Notes under the pieces: generated by a model
The model's input: the letters and a program-made list of their open reading frames with translations, nothing else
Told to the model about the DNA's origin: nothing
The model's database searches: none
Origin: Elusimicrobiota bacterium
Lineage (GTDB): Bacteria > Elusimicrobiota > Elusimicrobia > JACQJP01
DNA length: 52,525 nt
Direction of reading: 5' to 3'
NCBI GenBank assembly: GCA_016204975.1
Contig: JACQJP010000045.1
Location: 1-52,525, forward strand
Program-made: the position numbers and the translations under genes
Part shown: positions 21,977-47,370 of the stretch, in pieces
How positions within the stretch are numbered: position 1 is the stretch's first letter
Layout: every line of letters starts with the position of its first letter

Positions 21977-24381
21977 TCGCTAAAGACCGCACCCTCCGCA
22001 AAGCTCCGGGTACCGGCCGGGCCCCCACCGGGGGCCAGCGTGCCAGCACCCTCCGCGCCATCCTATTTGACTTTGGGGGGACCCTGGATGGTCCAGGGGT
22101 GGCGTGGCTGGACCGCTTCCTTCCCATCTACCGATCCCACGGAATCTCCGTGGACGCGGAAAACTTCCGGAAGGCCTTCTTCGAGGCGGATGACTGCCTC
22201 TCTCAACGCTACCCGTTGCGCCAAATGGGCTATCTGGAGACCCTGAAGGCCCAGGTAGAATCCGTGCTGAAAAACCTGGGATGCGAAAACCTTTCGCTGC
22301 AGGACTCCATCGCCGGAGAATTTTACCGGCAGGCCTATCGCACCATCCAGAAAAACATTCCCCTGCTCCAAGAACTCCGACGGAAATATCGCCTGGGAGT
22401 AATCTCCAACTTCTATGGCAATCTGGAAAACGTGCTGAAGGAAACGCAACTGATTTCTCTCTTGGATGTCTGGACCGATTCCTCCCTGGCCGGCTGCGAA
22501 AAGCCGGACCCCAGAATCTTCCAGGCCACTCTGGAGAAGCTCCAGCTTTCCCCCGCAGAAGCTCTCTTTGTGGGAGACTCCGTTTCCCGGGACATGGTGG
22601 GGGCCGCAAGGGCCGGGATGCCCCATGCGTGGCTCAGCCCATCTAAAAACCCCTGTCTGGAAGATATCTCTCCAACGAACTTTCCCTGTTGCCGACACCC
22701 GATCTTGGGCGCTCTGCAAGAGCTGCCCTCCCTCTTGGCCCCCAGCGTGCCGGCGGGAATCATCGCCGCCGGAACAGGGCAAAGGCTGAAGGCCCTCCGA
22801 GGAAACCTCCCCAAGGCCCTCTTTAAAATCCAAGGCAAACCCCTTCTGCACCACACCCTGGGGAACCTCCAAAGCGCCGGCATCCGCCGAGGCGTCTGCA
22901 TCCTGAACACCCAAGGCAAAGGGATGGACTCCGGGTTACAGATGGCATGGATTTTCCAGGACACCGCCTCCTCCTGGGAAAGCTTTCGAATCGTGGCGGA
23001 CCGTCTGGCGCAAATCTCCGAATCCTTCCTGGTGACCACCGTGGATGCCCTCTACCCCCCGCAGAAGTTGAAAGAATTTCTCCAGGCAGCTTCCAAAAAC
23101 TCCCACTGGGACGCCGGATTAGCCATCACCCCTTTTGTGGAGGATGAAAAACCCCTCTGGGCGGAAATCTCAGAAAAAGGTAGAATAGTCCGGCTGGGGT
23201 CCTCGGTTTCCAACTTTCGGTATGCCACCTGCGGCCTCTACTATCTTCGCAGCGCCTTCTGGAGGAGATTCCGGCAGGACCGGACCCCAAAAAAAAGCCT
23301 CCGTGAATTTTGGATCCAGTCCCTGAAACGGAAAGCCAGACTGGGCTCTTTTCTGATCGAAAAGGCGATTGACGTGGATCGGCCGGAGGATGTAAAAACG
23401 GCGGAGGAGTTTTTAAAATCCATGGCACGGCCCCCCAGTGGAATTGAAAAAATAGGAGAGCGGGTCCGATGCCTGGGCATCTATCGAGAACCCCTGCACT
23501 CCCCCAATCGGATTCCAGACGACGCCCTCATCCTGGAGTCGGTTCTCCAACACCTTCAGTCTCATGGCCTTCAAACCGAGGTGCAGCAGCCGCGGGTGCT
23601 GGACTCCCTGCGGGCCCGTGACTACGACCTAATTCTGCCGATGTGCGAGTCTCCGAGGGCCCTGGAAGAGCTCTTCCGCCTGCAAAATGAGGGCGCAAAG
23701 ATTCTCAATTCTCCCCAGTCCGTCTTAGCCTGCTACCGGACACAGATGGTCCCCCGGATGGAGCAGCTTTCCGAGGTTCTTTTTCCTCCCACTCGAATCT
23801 ATCCTGCAGACTCCTCGCAGCAATGCCTGCAGGAGGAACTGGCGGAGAACTCTTCTATCAAGATCGGATCCCTATGGATCAAGCGTGGGGACGTGCACAA
23901 CACCTGCGACCGAGACGTCGTCCGGCCCAGGAACTGGTCCGAGTGGGAGACGATCTCCCAAGATTTTCGCTCCCGGGGAATTGCCCAGGCGGTCTTTCAA
24001 AAGCACATCGAGGGAGACCTCTTGAAATTCTACGGGGTAGGGCCGGGCCGGTGGTTCTGCTGGTTCTACCATGATCCCGCCCGAGTCCGTCGCCATCCCT
24101 TCGCTCTCCCGGAGCTTCAAAAGAGCGTCACCGCCGCCGCGCAGGCCTTGCAGTTGGAAATCTTCGGAGGGGACGCCATCGTCACTCCCCATGGAGAGAT
24201 CTACCTGATTGATTTGAACAGCTGGCCCAGCTTCGCCAAATTCCGCGCCGAGGCTTCGGAAGAGATATCAAAATACATCCTCAGCTGCATCCCCAGACCC
24301 CGCCCCATCCCGACCGGCACCCTTCGCAGAGCTTCGGGTACCCGCCGGGGCCCCAGAGGGGCCCAGCGTGCATGGCGATGA
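21973..24381 (+). CDS. HAD phosphatase - nucleotidyltransferase - ATP-grasp triple fusion
   Basis: Three enzyme domains lie in one 802-residue chain. Residues about 30-240 are a HAD hydrolase (IFDF-type motif FDFGGTLD, motif IV VGDSVSRDMVGAA). Residues about 255-500 are a GlmU/IspD-like nucleotidyltransferase with intact IIAAGTGQRL and PKALFKIQGKPLL. From about 510 to the end is an ATP-grasp-like ligase (LILPMCESPRALEELF; KRGDVHNTCDRDVV; IFGGDAIVTP, EIYLIDLNSWPSF). The ATG at 21973 overlaps the preceding stop. Residues 7-25 or so and the last 21 residues are both encoded by copies of a palindromic repeat read in the same frame. The substrate is unknown; given Ino1 and a CDP-alcohol transferase downstream, CTP:inositol-phosphate cytidylyltransferase activity is a plausible inference for the middle domain. 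Confidence 0.82.
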   Translation: MIAKDRTLRKAPGTGRAPTGGQRASTLRAILFDFGGTLDGPGVAWLDRFLPIYRSHGISVDAENFRKAFFEADDCLSQRYPLRQMGYLETLKAQVESVLKNLGCENLSLQDSIAGEFYRQAYRTIQKNIPLLQELRRKYRLGVISNFYGNLENVLKETQLISLLDVWTDSSLAGCEKPDPRIFQATLEKLQLSPAEALFVGDSVSRDMVGAARAGMPHAWLSPSKNPCLEDISPTNFPCCRHPILGALQELPSLLAPSVPAGIIAAGTGQRLKALRGNLPKALFKIQGKPLLHHTLGNLQSAGIRRGVCILNTQGKGMDSGLQMAWIFQDTASSWESFRIVADRLAQISESFLVTTVDALYPPQKLKEFLQAASKNSHWDAGLAITPFVEDEKPLWAEISEKGRIVRLGSSVSNFRYATCGLYYLRSAFWRRFRQDRTPKKSLREFWIQSLKRKARLGSFLIEKAIDVDRPEDVKTAEEFLKSMARPPSGIEKIGERVRCLGIYREPLHSPNRIPDDALILESVLQHLQSHGLQTEVQQPRVLDSLRARDYDLILPMCESPRALEELFRLQNEGAKILNSPQSVLACYRTQMVPRMEQLSEVLFPPTRIYPADSSQQCLQEELAENSSIKIGSLWIKRGDVHNTCDRDVVRPRNWSEWETISQDFRSRGIAQAVFQKHIEGDLLKFYGVGPGRWFCWFYHDPARVRRHPFALPELQKSVTAAAQALQLEIFGGDAIVTPHGEIYLIDLNSWPSFAKFRAEASEEISKYILSCIPRPRPIPTGTLRRASGTRRGPRGAQRAWR
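21989..22043 (+). repeat. palindromic repeat copy A (translated, N-terminal)
   Basis: This 55-bp element lies inside the 5' end of the triple-fusion gene. It aligns without gaps to copy B with about eight substitutions. It contains a perfect 7-bp hairpin, GGCCCCC/GGGGGCC. It is translated as a peptide of the form TLR-K-APGTGRAPTGGQRA. Confidence 0.75.
24317..24371 (+). repeat. palindromic repeat copy B (translated, C-terminal)
   Basis: This 55-bp element spans the last codons of the triple fusion and ends just before the next start codon. The hairpin is GGGCCCC/GGGGCCC, with arms different from copy A but still perfectly paired. It is read in the same frame as copy A, giving TLRRASGTRRGPRGAQRA. 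Confidence 0.78.
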
Positions 24382-31218: not shown

Positions 31219-32907
31219 CTAACGCCCATTCTCTGCTGGGCCGGAAGCCTTGTGGAGCTCCGCTTCAAGTTCCCGGAGACCGGCCAAATATCGGTGGGTA
31301 CGCACGGAGGTGGAGCGGGGGAGAAGGGTTTCTTTTAAAGCCTCTTCAACCGTGCGGCTCGCCTTCTGAGGTTGCCCAAGCTTTAATTCAATTTCTGCCT
31401 TCAGACGCACCGCTCTCAAATAGTTGTCCCCATAGGCATGTTCCACAGCGTGTTGGGCGCGCTCATAGGCAACGGGATACTCTTTAAGTTTTGCGAGCAT
31501 GGAGGCATAATAATAATGAAAGGTGAACTCCTTTGAATAGATCCTAGCCAGGGATTCATAGAGAACCTTGGCCTCCTTAAGCCGCCCGGCCCTGTAGAGC
31601 GCATCGGCTCTCTCAAGATTAGCTCCGCGCGCTGTCGCCGGATCCGATTGGGCGGAAAGATCCTTCCAGTACTCTGAGGAGCGCACGAAGGCGGCCCGAG
31701 ACCGCTGCATCTCTCTCGCGAGTTCCAATAAATCCCCCAGGGCATACTCCAACCAGCCCGGGTTGTATGGGGTTTTCTCCAGTTCGGAGGAGGCCTTCCA
31801 AGCCCTGACGTTTTTCTCCGCTCCTCTGAGATGGCGAAGGGCGTAGGCCCGATTGAGGCTGATGAGACCGCTGATCCAGTAGACATATTCCACATCCTCG
31901 GGAAACTCTCTTACCAGAGACTTCAAAGCATCTTCCAAGGCCGCAGGATCCTCCGCCTGCTCGGCCAACTCCATGTGTGCGAGTAACTCATGGCGTCTGG
32001 CCCGGGGATATGGCAGACCCTGAAGAAGGGAGGCCGACTCTTCCCACTCGCCCCGCTCATAACGCCACAACCCTGCGCGCAACCGAGCTTCTTGGGCCGC
32101 GGGGCCTTCCCCCTTGGCAAGTCGAAGCGCCTCTTCCATGGGAAGCCTTTTCATTTCCCGAATTTCCTCAAGCCAAGCCAATAAAGGCCCCAACGGACGG
32201 TAGCTGACGAGCCGCCCGATTTCACGAAGCTGCGCATCCGCCACAATCAGGGTGGGGTATCCACGCACCTTAAAACGGGCCTTCCAGTTCCAGGAAAGCC
32301 CCGAGTCAGCGTCCAGGCTGAGCCGGATCATCCCCGAGGTGGCCTCCTGAAACTCCCGCCGGGGATAGATGAGTTCCTCCAGGAGGTTGCACGGCGGGCA
32401 CCAAACGGCCCCAAAATGGATGAAAATCAACTCCCCTTTTTCCTCAGCCTCTCTCTGAGCCTCCTGCGGCCCACCCCGAAAAAACCCGGGGGGCAACGGT
32501 CTTAAGTGAAGCCGAGGAGATTGCCCCGCTCCTTGTGGCGGCGCTATTTTTTCGGAAACAACATCCTTAGACGAGAAGACCCTCGCAAAAAATCTCTCTG
32601 GCCGGCAGAAGGTCTTGGCGTCATCACACACGCTGGCTACGACCTGGACTCTCCCGGGTTCACTCAATTGACAGCGGAAGCGGCGAGGAGAAAGCTCCAG
32701 GGGAGGAGCTCCCCCACAGCTCTGCGGGGCCTGGGATTCAAAGTGGTGTTTGGGAACCGGCCGAAGCTCCAAAACCTCATGGAGCAAAAACTCCTCCGGA
32801 TGTTCCCCAAGCAAGGAAGGAGGCGCCGCCCCCAGGCTCGATGCCACGTGGAAAGCTGCTAAGAAACAAGCCAAAGACAAAACGGACACGACTCCTCCGG
32901 ATTTCAT
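31219..32907 (-). CDS. periplasmic thioredoxin-like protein with TPR repeats
   Basis: The 562-residue product has an N-terminal signal peptide (to about residue 27, LGAA). A thioredoxin-fold domain at about 145-265 carries the redox pair Cys170/Cys173 in AVWCPPCN and the cis-Pro loop RGYPTLIV. TPR-like helices fill about 270-550 (YASMLAKLKEYPVAYERA; KAEIELKLGQPQKAS). An extra N-terminal domain of about 110 residues is unassigned. It is probably a secreted thiol-disulfide oxidoreductase or chaperone for Cys-containing proteins. Its promoter probably gives a very short leader. Confidence 0.8.
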   Translation of the reverse strand: MKSGGVVSVLSLACFLAAFHVASSLGAAPPSLLGEHPEEFLLHEVLELRPVPKHHFESQAPQSCGGAPPLELSPRRFRCQLSEPGRVQVVASVCDDAKTFCRPERFFARVFSSKDVVSEKIAPPQGAGQSPRLHLRPLPPGFFRGGPQEAQREAEEKGELIFIHFGAVWCPPCNLLEELIYPRREFQEATSGMIRLSLDADSGLSWNWKARFKVRGYPTLIVADAQLREIGRLVSYRPLGPLLAWLEEIREMKRLPMEEALRLAKGEGPAAQEARLRAGLWRYERGEWEESASLLQGLPYPRARRHELLAHMELAEQAEDPAALEDALKSLVREFPEDVEYVYWISGLISLNRAYALRHLRGAEKNVRAWKASSELEKTPYNPGWLEYALGDLLELAREMQRSRAAFVRSSEYWKDLSAQSDPATARGANLERADALYRAGRLKEAKVLYESLARIYSKEFTFHYYYASMLAKLKEYPVAYERAQHAVEHAYGDNYLRAVRLKAEIELKLGQPQKASRTVEEALKETLLPRSTSVRTHRYLAGLRELEAELHKASGPAENGR

Positions 32908-32985: not shown

Positions 32986-33027
32986 CCTAGGTCCAAAGAC
33001 CTGGGCCTCCTAGGACCTTGGACCCAT
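32986..33027 (+). repeat. CCTAGG promoter element, copy 1
   Basis: This is an imperfect 35-bp inverted repeat (32990-33024; arms GGTCCAA and TTGGACC, with further pairing inward to a CCT loop). It is followed by CCCAT ending at 33027. The CCCAT is exactly 21 bp before the TACAAT at 33049. It shares CCTAGGTCCAAAGACCT with copy 3. Confidence 0.65.
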
Positions 33028-33045
33028 AGAGAAAAACCGAGGGAT

Positions 33046-33054
33046 TGATACAAT
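33046..33054 (+). promoter_or_regulatory. extended -10 of the secreted 192-residue protein
   Basis: TGATACAAT at 33046-33054. An ATG at 33053 overlaps this box, so it cannot be the start; the gene begins at 33113 behind a GGGAGGGG ribosome site. Confidence 0.5.
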
Positions 33055-33112
33055 GGCAGGCGAGGGACAGCCGGTAAACATTCCGGCATTAAAATCGGGA
33101 GGGGAAAAAAGT

Positions 33113-33691
33113 ATGCGAAAGATAGGTATGGCGATTGTTGTGGTAAGTTGCATGGCGCTTCAAAGCGCAGTCGCGCAAGCCCCGCAGGCGCCGGACTTAA
33201 GCTCCAGCTTCACGAGCGTGCGGATGCTGGCGGCCGGCTTTTGGCCATTCGGAAAATCCAGGGTGGAGAAAGTCCTACAAACCATCGAGGAGACCCGCGA
33301 GGCCGCGGTGCGGTTCACCATTGCCAGCAAGGCCCTAGATGAGTCTTCACCCTGCGGTGATGAGGAGACAGCCGACAAAAGGACTCCGCAATGCGCCCGA
33401 GCAGTTTCGGAGGCCCTCCAAGCGCTTGAGGATTTGACGGAAAAGACCGAGGCGCTGGTGAAAGCCACATTCGCCTTAAATGTCCGGGAGGCCAGTTCCT
33501 TAAAAGCCACCCTAGAAGATATCGGCGAGGTCATTAGGAACGAGGCGTCAGACATCAGCGTTCCCGAAGGAGATTATGATGTCTCCGATGAAGAAGTTTT
33601 CACGGAGGGGGAGAAGATCAAGGCGACGGCCCTGTTCCAAAGATACCTGGCGGCAGTCGTAAAGTTTCCTGAATATCCGGACGAATACTAA
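33113..33691 (+). CDS. small secreted protein of unknown function
   Basis: From the ATG at 33113 (GGGAGGGG about 8 bp upstream) this is a 192-residue protein with the signal peptide MRKIGMAIVVVSCMALQSAVA. The mature part is acidic and helical (KVLQTIEETREAAVRFTIA; ALEDLTEKTEALVKATFA) with two Cys in a short loop (PCGDEETADKRTPQCA). It may form a helical hairpin. I cannot assign a family. It is one of three secreted-protein genes behind the CCTAGG element. A terminator hairpin lies 48 bp after the stop. Confidence 0.65.
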   Translation: MRKIGMAIVVVSCMALQSAVAQAPQAPDLSSSFTSVRMLAAGFWPFGKSRVEKVLQTIEETREAAVRFTIASKALDESSPCGDEETADKRTPQCARAVSEALQALEDLTEKTEALVKATFALNVREASSLKATLEDIGEVIRNEASDISVPEGDYDVSDEEVFTEGEKIKATALFQRYLAAVVKFPEYPDEY

Positions 33692-33738: not shown

Positions 33739-33772
33739 AAAAAGCCAAAGCTCCTCCGAGCGTTGGCTTTTT
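33739..33772 (+). terminator. Rho-independent terminator
   Basis: Arms AAAAAGCCAA and TTGGCTTTTT, plus an inner GCTC/GAGC pair around a CTCC loop with one mismatch between the two blocks. The arm ends in a T run. It closes the small secreted-protein gene, and the last T of the run is the first base of the ribD promoter. Confidence 0.8.
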
Positions 33773-33780
33773 GCTATAAT
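33772..33780 (+). promoter_or_regulatory. extended -10 promoter of the riboflavin operon
   Basis: TGCTATAAT is a perfect extended -10, 9 bp before the ribD ATG. Transcription would start within a few bases of the start codon. No FMN riboswitch fits in this 98-bp gap. Confidence 0.6.
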
Positions 33781-33789
33781 AGGATCGTC

Positions 33790-34563
33790 ATGCCCTCCGA
33801 CGTAGAATACCTTCGGCGCGCGATGAGGCTGGCCCGAAAGGGAGTGGGGAAGGTGAGCCCCAATCCCCTGGTGGGGTGCGTCCTGGTCAAAGGGGGAAGG
33901 ATTGTGGGAGAAGGATACCATCCCTATTTCGGAGGTCCCCACGCGGAAATTGGAGCGCTGGAGAAGGCCGGTCCCAAAGCCCGCGAAGCTGCGCTCTACG
34001 TGAATCTGGAACCCTGCAACTGCTGGGGAAAGACCGGCCCCTGCACGGCGGCTATCCTGCAGGCCGGCATTTCCCGAGTCGTCGCCTCCATGGCCGACCC
34101 CGACCCCCGGGTTTCCGGAAAAGGCTTCCAGGTCCTGCGCCAGGCCGGAATCCAGGTTCGGTCGGGCCTCTTGGAGGCGGAGGCGAGGGACCTCAACCGC
34201 CCCTACCTCATCTGGACCACTCAAAAGCGCCCCTATGTCATCTTAAAGTCCGCGGCGACATTGGACGGAAAAATTGCCGCGCGCAACGGAAAATCCCGAT
34301 GGATCAGCTCCAAGGCCTCCCGAAATTATGTCCACCGCTTGCGCTCCCAGGTGGACGCCATTCTAGTGGGAACCCGCACCGTCCTTCAAGACGATCCGGA
34401 ACTGACCAGCCACGGCCAGGGGAAAAACCCGGTCCGAATCATCTTGGATGCCGGGGGGGTTCTCACACCGCAACAAAAGGTTTTCAATGGCTCCGCCCAG
34501 ACTCTGCTGATGACTTCCGGAAAAAACTTTAATCTTCTGGCTAAGCGGTTTGAAAAGGAATAG
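33790..34563 (+). CDS. ribD: riboflavin biosynthesis deaminase/reductase RibD, interrupted by in-frame TAG
   Basis: RibD deaminates and then reduces the pyrimidine intermediate of riboflavin synthesis. The N-terminal deaminase domain is intact, with zinc ligands in PHAEIGALEKAG and LEPCNCWGKTGPC. The reductase domain begins normally (PYVILKSAATLDGKIAA; DAILVGTRTVLQDDPELT) but stops at a TAG (34561-34563) after 257 residues. The same frame continues without another stop to 34914 with the rest of the reductase, so the full-length protein would be about 374 residues, the family norm. The ATG at 33790 is preferred over an upstream TTG because the promoter -10 lies between them. Confidence 0.85.
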   Translation: MPSDVEYLRRAMRLARKGVGKVSPNPLVGCVLVKGGRIVGEGYHPYFGGPHAEIGALEKAGPKAREAALYVNLEPCNCWGKTGPCTAAILQAGISRVVASMADPDPRVSGKGFQVLRQAGIQVRSGLLEAEARDLNRPYLIWTTQKRPYVILKSAATLDGKIAARNGKSRWISSKASRNYVHRLRSQVDAILVGTRTVLQDDPELTSHGQGKNPVRIILDAGGVLTPQQKVFNGSAQTLLMTSGKNFNLLAKRFEKE

Positions 34564-41219: not shown

Positions 41220-41313
41220 GCACGCTGGGAGCCTCTGGCTCCCCGCCTGATACTCGTAGCTCTGCGGAGAGTGCTGGGCACCCGGCGGGTACCCGAAGCT
41301 CTGCGAAGGGTGC
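41220..41313 (-). repeat. palindromic repeat, copies C1 and C2
   Basis: Two head-to-tail copies of the 55-bp element lie in the opposite orientation to A and B. C1 (41220-41274) is full length; its hairpin arms read GGGAGCC/GGCTCCC on the - strand, again altered yet paired. C2 (41281-41313) is a 33-bp partial copy identical to the first 33 bp of copy B. Confidence 0.75.
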
Positions 41314-41377
41314 TAGGTCCAAAGTCCTATTCCCCTCTAGGCCTTTTATTTGCCTTTCTATGGGCCTTCCGTCCCAT
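41313..41377 (+). repeat. CCTAGG promoter element, copy 2
   Basis: It starts at the edge of C2 with CTAGGTCCAAAG. It contains CTAGGCC and TATGGGCCTTCCGT and ends in CCCAT at 41377, exactly 21 bp before TAAAAT (41399-41404). It is the most diverged of the three copies. Confidence 0.55.
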
Positions 41378-41398: not shown

Positions 41399-41404
41399 TA
41401 AAAT
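41399..41404 (+). promoter_or_regulatory. -10 box directly before a GTG start
   Basis: TAAAAT ends 6 bp before the GTG at 41411, so transcription would begin at or next to the start codon. Confidence 0.45.
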
Positions 41405-41410
41405 AAAGCC

Positions 41411-42409
41411 GTGGGTATTTTTACGGTCCTTCTATTAACCTTCACTGGCGTGGGGGCAGGGCAAACCCCAGCTTCCTCCCAAGAGAGCTCTCCTGCCCTT
41501 GCTCTGGTGAGCAACTATCAGCTTCGCATCCGAAGCGCCGCGACAAAAGATCCGGACGACGTTCGGCTTTTTGTTTACCGGGATTTACAAAACCAAAAAG
41601 TGATTCGATGGAAGCTCCAGATAGTTCCAGAGGGAAAATACGTCCCCGCTCTTGGGGGAGTTCCTGAACACCCGCCAAAAGAATATATTTTCCGACCCGG
41701 AGACCTGGAAGGGCTCAACTGCCGGCTCTCCCGCCCCGACTCCGGCTCTGCCGGAGGATTCTACGCCCCTCCCTGCGGAGAGCTGGGACAGCGCGCCGCG
41801 GGAGGATTCTACGGCCTGCGCCTGGAGGCGGAAGGCCTTCAGGAAATGGAAAGAGATCCCGACCTTCAGCTTGCCCACCGCACCGCCTTCTACCCCTTCG
41901 CGTGGGAACAGGCCAAGGAGATCTGTCCACAAGACCCCGCCCAATGCAACGGCCTCCTCATCCTGTATAACCTTTTTCGCTTCCCTCACCTCTACGCCGT
42001 CCGAGCCGGAACCACAAATAATTATTATCTGATCGCGGTGCACCTCTCCTATAATCCGGAGGAAAGCTACCTGGAAATTTCTGAGATCCAACGCGCCTCA
42101 GAAGGCTTCAGCATAGAGCTTCCCACGCCGGGACTCCCCTCTTCGAAAATTTTAGAGCAATCGGTCCGCTTCGGTTTCGGGGATTTGAGTGCGATGGGAT
42201 ACGAGCTGAGGCCGACGGGACTCTACAGCGAGGAAAATTTTCCGGTCCGGAAATTTTGCCCCTTCAACCACCCCTCCCACTGCGGGATCTTTCCGCTCCT
42301 GCAACGCCACCTGGAAAGAAAAAAAGAACCTCCCGCCGGCACGCCGGCCCCCTCCCACAACCTTACCTCGCCAACCCTTCGGGCATTCCAGGAATATCTA
42401 GGCAATTAA
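41411..42409 (+). CDS. secreted protein of unknown function
   Basis: The 332-residue product starts at GTG with no ribosome site and carries a short signal peptide (MGIFTVLLLTFTGVGAGQ). The mature part is a mixed, probably beta-rich protein (LVSNYQLRIRSAATKDPDDV; NNYYLIAVHLSYNPEESYLEI) with Cys pairs (CRLSRPDS...PPCGE; CPQDPAQC; CPFNHPSHC), suggesting disulfides. No family is recognised. It is preceded by the CCTAGG element and a -10 placed for a leaderless transcript. Its last 12 bp overlap the 3' end of kbl on the other strand. Confidence 0.65.
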   Translation: MGIFTVLLLTFTGVGAGQTPASSQESSPALALVSNYQLRIRSAATKDPDDVRLFVYRDLQNQKVIRWKLQIVPEGKYVPALGGVPEHPPKEYIFRPGDLEGLNCRLSRPDSGSAGGFYAPPCGELGQRAAGGFYGLRLEAEGLQEMERDPDLQLAHRTAFYPFAWEQAKEICPQDPAQCNGLLILYNLFRFPHLYAVRAGTTNNYYLIAVHLSYNPEESYLEISEIQRASEGFSIELPTPGLPSSKILEQSVRFGFGDLSAMGYELRPTGLYSEENFPVRKFCPFNHPSHCGIFPLLQRHLERKKEPPAGTPAPSHNLTSPTLRAFQEYLGN

Positions 42410-45588: not shown

Positions 45589-45684
45589 CCTACGCAGAGC
45601 TCGTCACGCCCCACTGGGGCTTCCTACGCCCCTGGCCTCTGGCCGGGGGTCGGGTACCAGCCGGGCGCCCAGAGGGCACCAACG
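45567..45684 (+). repeat. palindromic repeat, copy D (rearranged)
   Basis: It contains a partial copy (CCGCAAAGCTCGG), then GCACCCTACGCAGAGCTCG and, after an unrelated insert with its own short hairpin (CCCCACTGGGG), the distal part (CGGGTACCAGCCGGGCGCCCAGAGG). It overlaps the start of the proline dehydrogenase gene. Confidence 0.6.
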
Positions 45685-45734
45685 TTCTAGAATAGGACCG
45701 GGGATTCCCGCAAGATGATTTTACGGGGAAATTC

Positions 45735-45750: not shown

Positions 45751-46032
45751 ATGGATGAAAAAAACTGGCAGGACCTTCCGGCAGGCGACTGGATCGCTCA
45801 AGGTTTGAAGGACCTGGTTCAGGGGCTGAAAACCGTGCCCTCCCTCTTAGTCTCGATTGGAGCCCCGAAACTCAAACGCAAAGGCATCTCGGTTGCCCAT
45901 ACGATCTCCCAACCCGAACTGGAGCTTTACGCACTCCTCAAGAAGCAAAACCCTGACGCCGCCCACTCCCGCTACAACGCTCTCCTGGGCAGGTTGGTCA
46001 GCTTCGAACATTCCATAAAATGCGAGAAGTAG
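45751..46032 (+). CDS. small protein paired with a nucleotidyltransferase (possible antitoxin)
   Basis: The 93-residue product is helical, with a basic central segment (APKLKRKGISVAHT) and a C-terminal helical part (LELYALLKKQNPDAAHSRY). No DNA-binding motif is certain. It overlaps the next gene by 13 bp, an arrangement usual for toxin-antitoxin pairs. A longer version starting at 45715 would begin before the -10 box and is rejected. The antitoxin role is inferred only from context. Confidence 0.6.
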   Translation: MDEKNWQDLPAGDWIAQGLKDLVQGLKTVPSLLVSIGAPKLKRKGISVAHTISQPELELYALLKKQNPDAAHSRYNALLGRLVSFEHSIKCEK

Positions 46033-46547
46033 CCGATGCCACGCGCATTCGCGAGTTTATGCGCGCCCTGGGCCGATGCGGCGCCGAACCAACCAAGATC
46101 TACTTGACGGGAGGCGCCACCGCCGTCTTGATCGGCTGGAGGTCCACCACGATTGACGTGGATCTCAAAATCGTACCCGAAAGAGAATCGCTCCTGCGTA
46201 CTATCCCGGCTCTGAAAGAATCCCTGCAGATCAACGTAGAGTTCGCCGCTCCGGACCAGTTCGTTCCTCCGCTGGCCGGATGGGAGAGCCGCAGCCCGTT
46301 CATTGCCCAGGAGGAGCGTCTTTCATTCTTTCATTACGATCTTTACTCCCAAGCCTTGGCCAAGTTGGAACGCAGCCACCAACAGGACCTGGTAGATGTA
46401 CAGGCCATGCTCAAACGCCAATTGATTGATCCGGGGCGACTGCGGACCTACTACGAAGAGATGGAGCCCCAACTCTACCGCTATCCGGCGGTGGATGTTC
46501 CGACATTCCGCAAATCGCTGGAAGAACTCCTAGGTCCAAAGACCTAG
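46020..46547 (+). CDS. DUF6036/AbiEii-like nucleotidyltransferase
   Basis: The 175-residue product has a minimal nucleotidyltransferase core: KIYLTGGATAVLIGWRSTTIDVDLKIV, where GGA and the DVD acid pair match the pol-beta-type active site of AbiEii/DUF6036 proteins. Members are often the toxin half of two-gene defence or addiction modules. The stop codon lies inside the CCTAGG element, so the last residues (GPKT) are encoded by the repeat. Confidence 0.72.
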   Translation: MREVADATRIREFMRALGRCGAEPTKIYLTGGATAVLIGWRSTTIDVDLKIVPERESLLRTIPALKESLQINVEFAAPDQFVPPLAGWESRSPFIAQEERLSFFHYDLYSQALAKLERSHQQDLVDVQAMLKRQLIDPGRLRTYYEEMEPQLYRYPAVDVPTFRKSLEELLGPKT

Positions 46548-46594
46548 ATGGGCCTAGGACCTATTTCTACCCTCTCCTAGGACCTTCGGCCCAT
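46529..46594 (+). repeat. CCTAGG promoter element, copy 3
   Basis: It begins CCTAGGTCCAAAGACCTAG and contains three CCTAGG blocks. It ends in CCTAGGACCTTCGGCCCAT, with CCCAT exactly 21 bp before TACAAT at 46616. The first 17 bp are identical to copy 1. Confidence 0.65.
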
Positions 46595-46615: not shown

Positions 46616-46621
46616 TACAAT
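46616..46621 (+). promoter_or_regulatory. -10 box before the leader peptide
   Basis: TACAAT ends 6 bp before the ATG of the 14-codon leader ORF at 46628. Confidence 0.5.
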
Positions 46622-46627
46622 AGGTTT

Positions 46628-46672
46628 ATGACCGAGGAAATGGCGATACCCCTATGGGAGGGTGAACCGTGA
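46628..46672 (+). CDS. 14-residue leader peptide coupled to the HEXXH protein gene
   Basis: This short ORF starts at the first ATG after the -10 and encodes MTEEMAIPLWEGEP. Its TGA overlaps the GTG start of the next gene (GTGA), and GGGAGGGTG within its end is the ribosome site of that gene. Both the position of the -10 and the overlap suggest it is translated and coupled; no regulatory amino-acid run is seen. Confidence 0.4.
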   Translation: MTEEMAIPLWEGEP

Positions 46673-47370
46673 ATCTCCGGGTGATTTTAGCGTTTCTGGT
46701 GGGAATTGCCCTCCCGTCCGCCCTCTTTGCCGGCTCCTATACCATCTATTCGGACTTACTGGGACCCGCAGAATACTCCGCCGAAACCACCAGACACTTC
46801 CTCCAGTTGCACGAGCTGGGCCACATTCCGGAGGAAACCCTCCACGACGTCGCCCAGCAAACCTTCTCGGACCTGCCCCGTCCCTCCGGGGTGGACAACT
46901 CTGTTTCCATGGAAGCGCTGGCGGCATTCTCCCGCAACGCCGTTCCAAATACCCAGCCCTCCGACTATCAAAACATCGCCCACGCAGGCCGATGGGTCCT
47001 CTCCCAGGACCCCGAGGGGCAATCCCTCTGGGAAAACCGCCTGGCCCCGGTGCTGGAAGAGCTTGTAAAGTTAGGTCCCTCCCACATTCAGCTCGCAGTC
47101 CCTCTTCCCGCCGGCCGCTACGGCCAATTCGACTTCTACGAAGGGCAAACCGGAACGGAACACCTAAGGCTGAACCAGGTTCTCTATGGGGCCTTTCGGC
47201 AAGGGAAGGCCACCCTGGAAGAGATCGCGGCGGTCTTTGTCCATGAACTCGCGCACGGACGCTGCCGCTTCGACCCCGCCCAGGGCTGCTCCGAGCCCGA
47301 GGAATCCGAAGCCTACGCCCGGCAGGCGGAAGGAATCTACCTCCGCGCCCTTTCCTCACATAATCCCTGA
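46669..47370 (+). CDS. secreted protein with HEXXH zinc-protease motif
   Basis: The 233-residue product begins at GTG 46669 with a signal peptide (MNLRVILAFLVGIALPSALFA). A single VFVHELAHGRC places His192, Glu193 and His196 as zinc ligands and general base. A downstream acid-rich helix (EPEESEAYARQAEGIYL) could supply the third ligand, as in gluzincin-type proteases. Cys residues flank the site. It may be a secreted or periplasmic metallopeptidase, but the fold is otherwise unrecognised. It is the third secreted gene behind a CCTAGG element. Confidence 0.65.
   Translation: MNLRVILAFLVGIALPSALFAGSYTIYSDLLGPAEYSAETTRHFLQLHELGHIPEETLHDVAQQTFSDLPRPSGVDNSVSMEALAAFSRNAVPNTQPSDYQNIAHAGRWVLSQDPEGQSLWENRLAPVLEELVKLGPSHIQLAVPLPAGRYGQFDFYEGQTGTEHLRLNQVLYGAFRQGKATLEEIAAVFVHELAHGRCRFDPAQGCSEPEESEAYARQAEGIYLRALSSHNP

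What the first reader, a model, noticed from the sequence alone, without database searches (positions are those of the whole stretch)
32986..33054. Shared promoter element at exactly 21 bp from the -10 in front of three secreted-protein genes
CCTAGG-rich, partly palindromic elements end in CCCAT at 33027, 41377 and 46594. In each case 21 bp separate CCCAT from a -10-like hexamer (TACAAT, TAAAAT, TACAAT). All three downstream genes encode signal-peptide proteins (33113, 41411, 46669). The fixed phasing and common product type suggest an activator site or alternative-promoter element defining a secretome regulon, rather than a random repeat.
Basis: partly seen in the sequence, partly recalled or inferred. 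Interest (0 to 1): 0.8.

Follow-up and report, generated by a model that had tools for sequence, protein, structure and literature searches.

The report
Class-wide promoter switch for secreted proteins
The three promoter elements are real members of a previously undescribed gene-control network in Elusimicrobia, in which tandem palindromes sit at a fixed distance from the promoter of dozens of secreted-protein genes and are most likely bound by one highly conserved two-component response regulator.

Summary
At all three places CCCAT is exactly 21 bp from a -10-like hexamer, and each copy closes an 18-bp dyad (consensus CTAGGTC-YAAA-GACCTAG). The window's genome (an Elusimicrobia MAG, 1.50 Mb) has about 37 such places. 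Dyads are phased at 23-24 or 47 bp, and the -10 lies exactly 21 bp from the gene-proximal dyad (17 strand-dyads at offset 21; shuffles reach at most 6). None lies inside a gene or between convergent genes. Most precede signal-peptide genes: 26/37 automatically, about 33/37 by eye, against 26/64 control intergenics. In a 98%-complete relative, 17 of 20 sampled elements do. The proximal dyad is centred near -42.5 with no -35 hexamer, which is class II activator geometry. CRP- and OmpR-type regulators are absent from two motif-rich genomes. One very conserved NarL/LuxR-type response regulator (recognition helix KT[VI]KNHLN, DevR/DosR-like) tracks the motif. Of 150 phylum genomes, 61 have both, 5 the regulator only, 0 the motif only, 84 neither. 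It is encoded beside a dCACHE histidine kinase, a REC-kinase and pilin-like genes. The regulator-site pairing is inferred, not shown. Kind of mechanism: known. Regulon, operator and regulator: apparently undescribed.

The parts
32987..33004 (+). Site 1, distal 18-bp dyad CTAGGTCCAAAGACCTGG (centre about -65.5 from the predicted start)
33010..33027 (+). Site 1, proximal dyad CTAGGACCTTGGACCCAT (contains the reported CCCAT; 23 bp from the distal dyad; centre about -42.5)
   Evidence: profile R1 match 32987-33055, E 9.4e-14
33049..33054 (+). Site 1, -10-like hexamer TACAAT, 21 bp after the dyad; no -35-like hexamer at 17 bp spacing (ATAGAG)
   Evidence: offset statistics
33113..33691 (+). Secreted protein of unknown family, 192 aa, signal peptide
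31219..32907 (-). Divergent signal-peptide protein with thioredoxin-like and TPR domains; shares the intergenic region with site 1 (its control by the element is not shown)
41313..41330 (+). Site 2, distal dyad CTAGGTCCAAAGTCCTAT
41360..41377 (+). Site 2, weak proximal dyad ATGGGCCTTCCGTCCCAT, 47 bp (two periods) from the distal dyad
41399..41404 (+). Site 2, -10-like hexamer TAAAAT, 21 bp after the dyad
41411..42409 (+). Probable secreted protein, 332 aa; GTG start about 7 nt after the -10, so the mRNA may be leaderless
46530..46547 (+). Site 3, distal dyad CTAGGTCCAAAGACCTAG (exact consensus; overlaps the end of the upstream gene 46020-46547)
46547..46564 (+). Site 3, middle dyad-like copy (GATGGGCCTAGGACCTAT register; CTAGGACC at 46554)
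46577..46594 (+). Site 3, proximal dyad CTAGGACCTTCGGCCCAT, 47 bp from the distal dyad
46616..46621 (+). Site 3, -10-like hexamer TACAAT, 21 bp after the dyad
46669..47370 (+). Secreted protein, 233 aa, signal peptide, HELAHG (zinc-protease-like) motif; no Pfam family

Best explanation
The elements are operators of an activator-dependent promoter class that controls part of the secretome of most families of this Elusimicrobia class. Dimers of one regulator bind a tandem array of 18-bp dyads (TAGGTC-N4-GACCTA) phased at 23-24 or 47 bp. The dimer on the gene-proximal dyad (centre about -42.5) overlaps the missing -35 element and recruits RNA polymerase at an ordinary -10, which explains the invariant 21 bp; the distal dimers add cooperative affinity. 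The regulator is most likely the conserved NarL/LuxR-type response regulator at G000:C30:67011-67664. It would be phosphorylated by the dCACHE-HAMP sensor kinase and/or the REC-histidine kinase encoded just upstream, so an extracellular signal would switch on a set of secreted proteins together. Shown by sequence: motif, phasing, fixed -10 distance, location, enrichment for signal peptides, co-occurrence with the regulator. Inferred: binding by this regulator, activation rather than repression, phosphorelay order, the signal.
For: Phasing: dyad-dyad spacings in the own genome cluster at 22-25 (21 pairs) and 46-48 (13 pairs); shuffles give none at 22-25. Fixed 21 bp to the -10 in two genomes. 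Hits anchored on the distal dyad only, chosen without regard to a -10, also peak at offsets 44-45, weakly. Intergenic and upstream only. Signal-peptide enrichment. Class-wide conservation: about 85 pattern hits against about 7 control hits; G033 77, G038 46, G029 34, G058 32 matches; five genomes of families f4, f5, f7, f12 none. Elusimicrobia identity. CRP family absent in G038 and G058, OmpR family absent there. NarL-type regulator; 64-75% identical across families, with KT[VI]KNHLN invariant among the nine aligned. Co-occurrence: 60 class genomes 35 both, 4 regulator only, 0 motif only; 150 phylum genomes 61 both, 5 regulator only, 0 motif only, 84 neither. Two of the five exceptions carry an altered DNA-binding end: G143 lacks the HTH, and G160 reads SINTVKNHI, the K179-equivalent changed. 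Operon with dCACHE kinase and REC-kinase. DosR's three core DNA-binding residues are K179, K182, N183 (PMC5999986), all conserved here. DevR promoters have closely packed cooperative sites with the proximal one overlapping the -35 (PMC3029386).
Against: No binding, expression or transcription-start data. Co-occurrence counts are inflated by common descent; genomes are not independent, and the contrast is essentially between families. Another conserved regulator with the same distribution cannot be excluded; only the CRP, OmpR, NarL and HTH_3 families were surveyed. Three genomes (G037, G049, G156) have an intact regulator but no strong motif match, though G037 has two weak pattern hits. The signal-peptide caller is crude, and the automated own-genome test is only p = 0.004. 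The signal peptide at 41411 is atypical.
Confidence: 0.78

Rival explanations
1. The same promoter architecture, but the dyads are bound by a different conserved regulator (for example a cI-like XRE protein or the second NarL-type regulator); the response regulator merely shares its distribution.
For: The spacing of about 23.5 bp with a site at -42 is also that of lambda OR1/OR2 (own knowledge). HTH_3 proteins exist in all 13 genomes tested, and G038 and G058 carry a second GerE protein.
Against: HTH_3 proteins are present in motif-negative genomes too, often in greater number, and only one is found in G038. The second GerE protein of G038/G058 has another helix (SLNTVHVHRNN), and those of motif-negative genomes differ again. 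The proposed regulator matches the motif's distribution without exception on the motif side.
Confidence: 0.15
2. The dyads are repressor operators rather than activator sites.
For: A site at -42 next to a -10 could also block polymerase; sequence alone does not give the sign.
Against: No -35-like hexamer at 17 bp spacing in the three window promoters. Conservation of an exact distance upstream of the -10, and of phased upstream copies, is typical of activators; repressor sites usually vary in position (own knowledge).
Confidence: 0.08
3. The dyads act as RNA hairpins (attenuator, riboswitch or terminator) or are a mobile REP-like repeat.
For: The arms CTAGGTC/GACCTAG are perfectly complementary, and variants often keep complementarity (one search list).
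Against: They lie upstream of the -10 at a fixed distance, so they would not be transcribed from this promoter. No Rfam match. Never between convergent genes. Copies diverge except for the dyads and the spacing.
Confidence: 0.03
4. Recognition by an alternative sigma factor (extracytoplasmic-function sigma or sigma-54) instead of an activator.
For: Fixed spacing between two blocks.
Against: The -10 is of the ordinary TAnAAT type, the upstream block is a repeated palindrome, and 21 bp between blocks is too long for a -35/-10 pair; no -24/-12 GG/GC pattern.
Confidence: 0.03

Closest known systems
DevR/DosR regulon of Mycobacterium tuberculosis (NarL-family response regulator)
   Same: NarL-type response regulator with K-T-V/I-K-N recognition helix; GG-A/T-C N4 G-A/T-C-C type palindromes (DosR consensus from own knowledge); closely packed sites with the proximal one overlapping the -35 and cooperative binding (PMC3029386)
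   Different: Different phylum and different operator sequence; the genes here are mostly secreted proteins, not the hypoxia set; phasing here is 23-24/47 bp; kinases are a dCACHE sensor and a REC-kinase
LiaR / VraR envelope-stress response regulators (Gram-positive bacteria)
   Same: Closest sequences of known structure (5hev E 1.3e-37, VraR 7ve6 E 1.1e-36); inverted-repeat operator in S. mutans LiaR (PMC4447274); regulons concerned with the cell surface
   Different: No LiaF-like gene noticed beside it (not searched specifically); the sensor kinase has a dCACHE domain; the regulon is secreted proteins, and the operator is a phased array fixed to the -10
Class II activation as at CRP/FNR- and LuxR-dependent promoters, and lambda PRM (OR1/OR2)
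   Same: Dimer site centred near -42, second site about 24 bp upstream, no -35 hexamer (own knowledge)
   Different: CRP family is absent from two genomes with the strongest motif sets; no phage context

Membership tests
NarL/LuxR-type two-component response regulator (the proposed regulator) | Receiver domain followed by a GerE/LuxR helix-turn-helix | tested here: met
   Response_reg E 1.1e-29 and GerE E 3.6e-15 in the same 219-aa protein
NarL/LuxR-type two-component response regulator (the proposed regulator) | Partner histidine kinase encoded nearby | tested here: met
   dCACHE-HAMP-HisKA-HATPase and REC-HisKA-HATPase genes directly upstream in G000 and G051; similar order in G038, G058, G016
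NarL/LuxR-type two-component response regulator (the proposed regulator) | Binds the dyads described here | not testable with these tools
   Only co-occurrence and helix residues
Class II activator-dependent promoter | Activator site overlapping the -35 at a fixed distance from the -10 | tested here: met
   Offset 21 bp in 17 own-genome strand-dyads and 15 in G038
Class II activator-dependent promoter | Transcription start 6-8 nt after the -10 and activation by the regulator | not testable with these tools
   No transcription data
CRP/FNR regulon | CRP-family protein in every genome that has the motif | tested here: not met
   PF13545 absent from G038 and G058, which have 46 and 32 motif matches
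OmpR/PhoB regulon | Winged-helix (PF00486) regulator in every genome that has the motif | tested here: not met
   Absent from G038 and G058
DevR/DosR regulon | DosR core DNA-contact residues K179, K182, N183 | tested here: met
   KT[VI]KN invariant in the nine aligned regulators; residues from PMC5999986
DevR/DosR regulon | Heme-sensing DosS/DosT kinases and hypoxia gene set | tested here: not met
   Kinase has a dCACHE domain; targets are secreted proteins

The most novel reading that the evidence does not exclude
A single phosphorelay acts as a master switch for a large part of the secretome in most families of an Elusimicrobia class, through an operator and regulator conserved since their common ancestor, while the secreted proteins themselves are fast-changing and mostly of unknown family.
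Probability: 0.5. Interest if true: 0.75.

Novelty: new member of a known kind. Interest (0 to 1): 0.62.

Why it matters
Elusimicrobia are mostly uncultured, and my literature searches found no described regulon for them. This one comes with its operator, promoter geometry, candidate regulator and kinases, so it is directly testable. It also gives a handle on dozens of secreted proteins of unknown function (several protease-like), which can now be grouped by shared control.

Tried and rejected
The hexamer CCTAGG as the unit: not enriched in the window. RNA element: no Rfam hit, and position argues against it. CRP and OmpR families as binder: absent from motif-rich genomes. XRE/HTH_3: no fit with the distribution. 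Motif outside Elusimicrobia: 19 stretches in 84,980 genomes, about half of them Elusimicrobia, the rest scattered in unrelated taxa at about the number expected by chance (two viral contigs). A first -10 profile anchored on the distal dyad gave only a weak peak; anchoring on the dyad nearest the gene resolved it. A script with a mis-centred matrix gave nothing and was redone. Literature searches for an Elusimicrobia regulon found none.

Full report
OBSERVATION. The three elements are present as described. CCCAT occupies 33023-33027, 41373-41377 and 46590-46594 and is followed after exactly 21 bp by TACAAT, TAAAAT and TACAAT. CCTAGG as such is not enriched in the window (8 against 11.4 expected). 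What repeats is an 18-bp dyad, CTAGGTC-YAAA-GACCTAG, in tandem copies; the CCCAT is the end of the copy nearest the gene.

GENOME AND TAXON. The window is contig 25 of a 1.50-Mb, 87%-complete draft genome. An exact search of 84,980 species genomes for CTAGGTCYAAAGACCTAG returns Elusimicrobia records, including two motif-rich relatives used below (JAHFCF, G033; RUG11046, G038), plus scattered hits in unrelated taxa at about the chance level.

MOTIF. Aligning 16 elements from several families gives distal dyad - 5 to 8 bases - CTAGGNCCTTTGACCC - N22-24 - TATAMT. A structure-free profile of this (R1) finds 64 matches at about 37 distinct places in the own genome at E <= 5. In 12 relatives it finds 77, 46, 34, 32, 16, 8 and 5 matches (E <= 0.01) in seven genomes and none in five.

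FIXED GEOMETRY, TESTED WITHOUT CIRCULARITY. Because R1 contains the -10, geometry was tested with a dyad-only matrix. Pairs of dyads in own-genome elements are spaced 22-25 bp (21 pairs) or 46-48 bp (13 pairs); shuffled sequence gives none at 22-25. Downstream of the dyad nearest the gene, a -10-like hexamer occurs at offset 21 in 17 own-genome strand-dyads (next highest offset 4; maximum 6 in 1000 shuffles) and in 15 in G038 (maximum 10). The proximal dyad is therefore centred about 30 bp upstream of the -10, i.e. near -42.5 if the -10 is at -12 to -7. The three window promoters have no -35-like hexamer at 17 bp spacing.

LOCATION AND TARGETS. None of 37 own-genome places and none of 20 places in 400 kb of G038 is inside a gene or between convergent genes. 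In the own genome 26 of 37 have a signal-peptide gene within 330 bp by an automatic caller, and about 33 by eye; 26 of 64 control intergenic regions do by the same caller (p = 0.004). In G038, 17 of 20 do, against 32 of 141 other promoter-bearing genes (p about 1e-7). The G038 stretches were chosen partly where profile matches were known, which affects the density of elements but not what lies beside them. Exceptions in the own genome include mutS, rpsF and a receiver-domain gene. Most target proteins have no Pfam family. Those recognised include M48, M20 and reprolysin-like peptidases, VWA, YfiO, HEAT, PHP and (weakly) ChaN/Tiki-like domains.

REGULATOR. CRP-type and OmpR-type regulators are absent from G038 and G058 (98% and 96% complete), which speaks against them as a class-wide binder. 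A NarL-type response regulator is the only GerE-domain protein found in the own genome. Its orthologues are 64-75% identical to it across families, and the recognition helix KT[VI]KNHLN is invariant in the nine aligned. In 60 genomes of the class, all 35 with the motif (E <= 0.001) have this regulator (E <= 1e-100); four have the regulator only. In 150 genomes of the phylum: 61 both, 5 regulator only, 0 motif only, 84 neither. The two genome sets overlap, and the counts are not independent because of shared ancestry, but the direction is one-sided. Two of the five exceptions have an altered DNA-binding end: G143 has no helix-turn-helix, and G160 reads SINTVKNHI. Nearest known structures are LiaR/VraR and DevR. 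The three core DNA-binding residues of DosR (PMC5999986) are all conserved. DevR promoters share the close packing, the overlap of the proximal site with the -35 and cooperative binding (PMC3029386). The gene lies in an operon-like cluster: dCACHE-HAMP histidine kinase, REC-histidine kinase, regulator, then pilin-like genes.

INTERPRETATION. The best reading is a class II activator promoter, with the response regulator binding phased dyads cooperatively and switching on a set of secreted proteins in response to an extracellular signal. The geometry, location and enrichment are shown computationally. The identity of the binder, the sign of regulation, the phosphorelay and the signal are inferred.

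NOVELTY. The kind of mechanism is well known. No described regulon for Elusimicrobia turned up in the literature available here; subscription papers are largely missing from that library. I file it as a new member of a known kind: a NarL-type response-regulator regulon with a new operator and regulator.

Noticed in passing
window 21989-22043, 24317-24371, 41220-41313, 45633-45687; also L009, L011, L015: A second, G+C-rich interspersed repeat (GCACCCTTCGCAGAGCTTCGGGTACCCGCCGGG...), in both orientations, near gene ends and sometimes beside the dyad elements; REP-like.
   Followed up: no
window 41399-41413: The GTG start of the 41411 gene lies about 7 nt after the -10, which would make the mRNA leaderless.
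   Followed up: no
window 33763-34563: ribD-like gene of 266 aa matches only positions 2-240 of the 343-position RibD model; the reductase domain appears truncated.
   Followed up: no
L222 (G000:C30:62000-72549), L215, L216, L266: The kinase/REC-kinase/regulator cluster is followed by Flp/TadE-like small membrane genes in several families, suggesting a link to a pilus-like apparatus.
   Followed up: partly
G003:C18:619104-619238 (relative, family f4): A reported open frame of 10,906 aa, a giant gene in a motif-negative relative.
   Followed up: no
G000:C8:60694, C50:23465, C10:45853, C53:10614, C48:31341: Several large secreted proteins share a signal-peptide ending of the type SPGPxxYxAxA, possibly one divergent family.
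   Followed up: no
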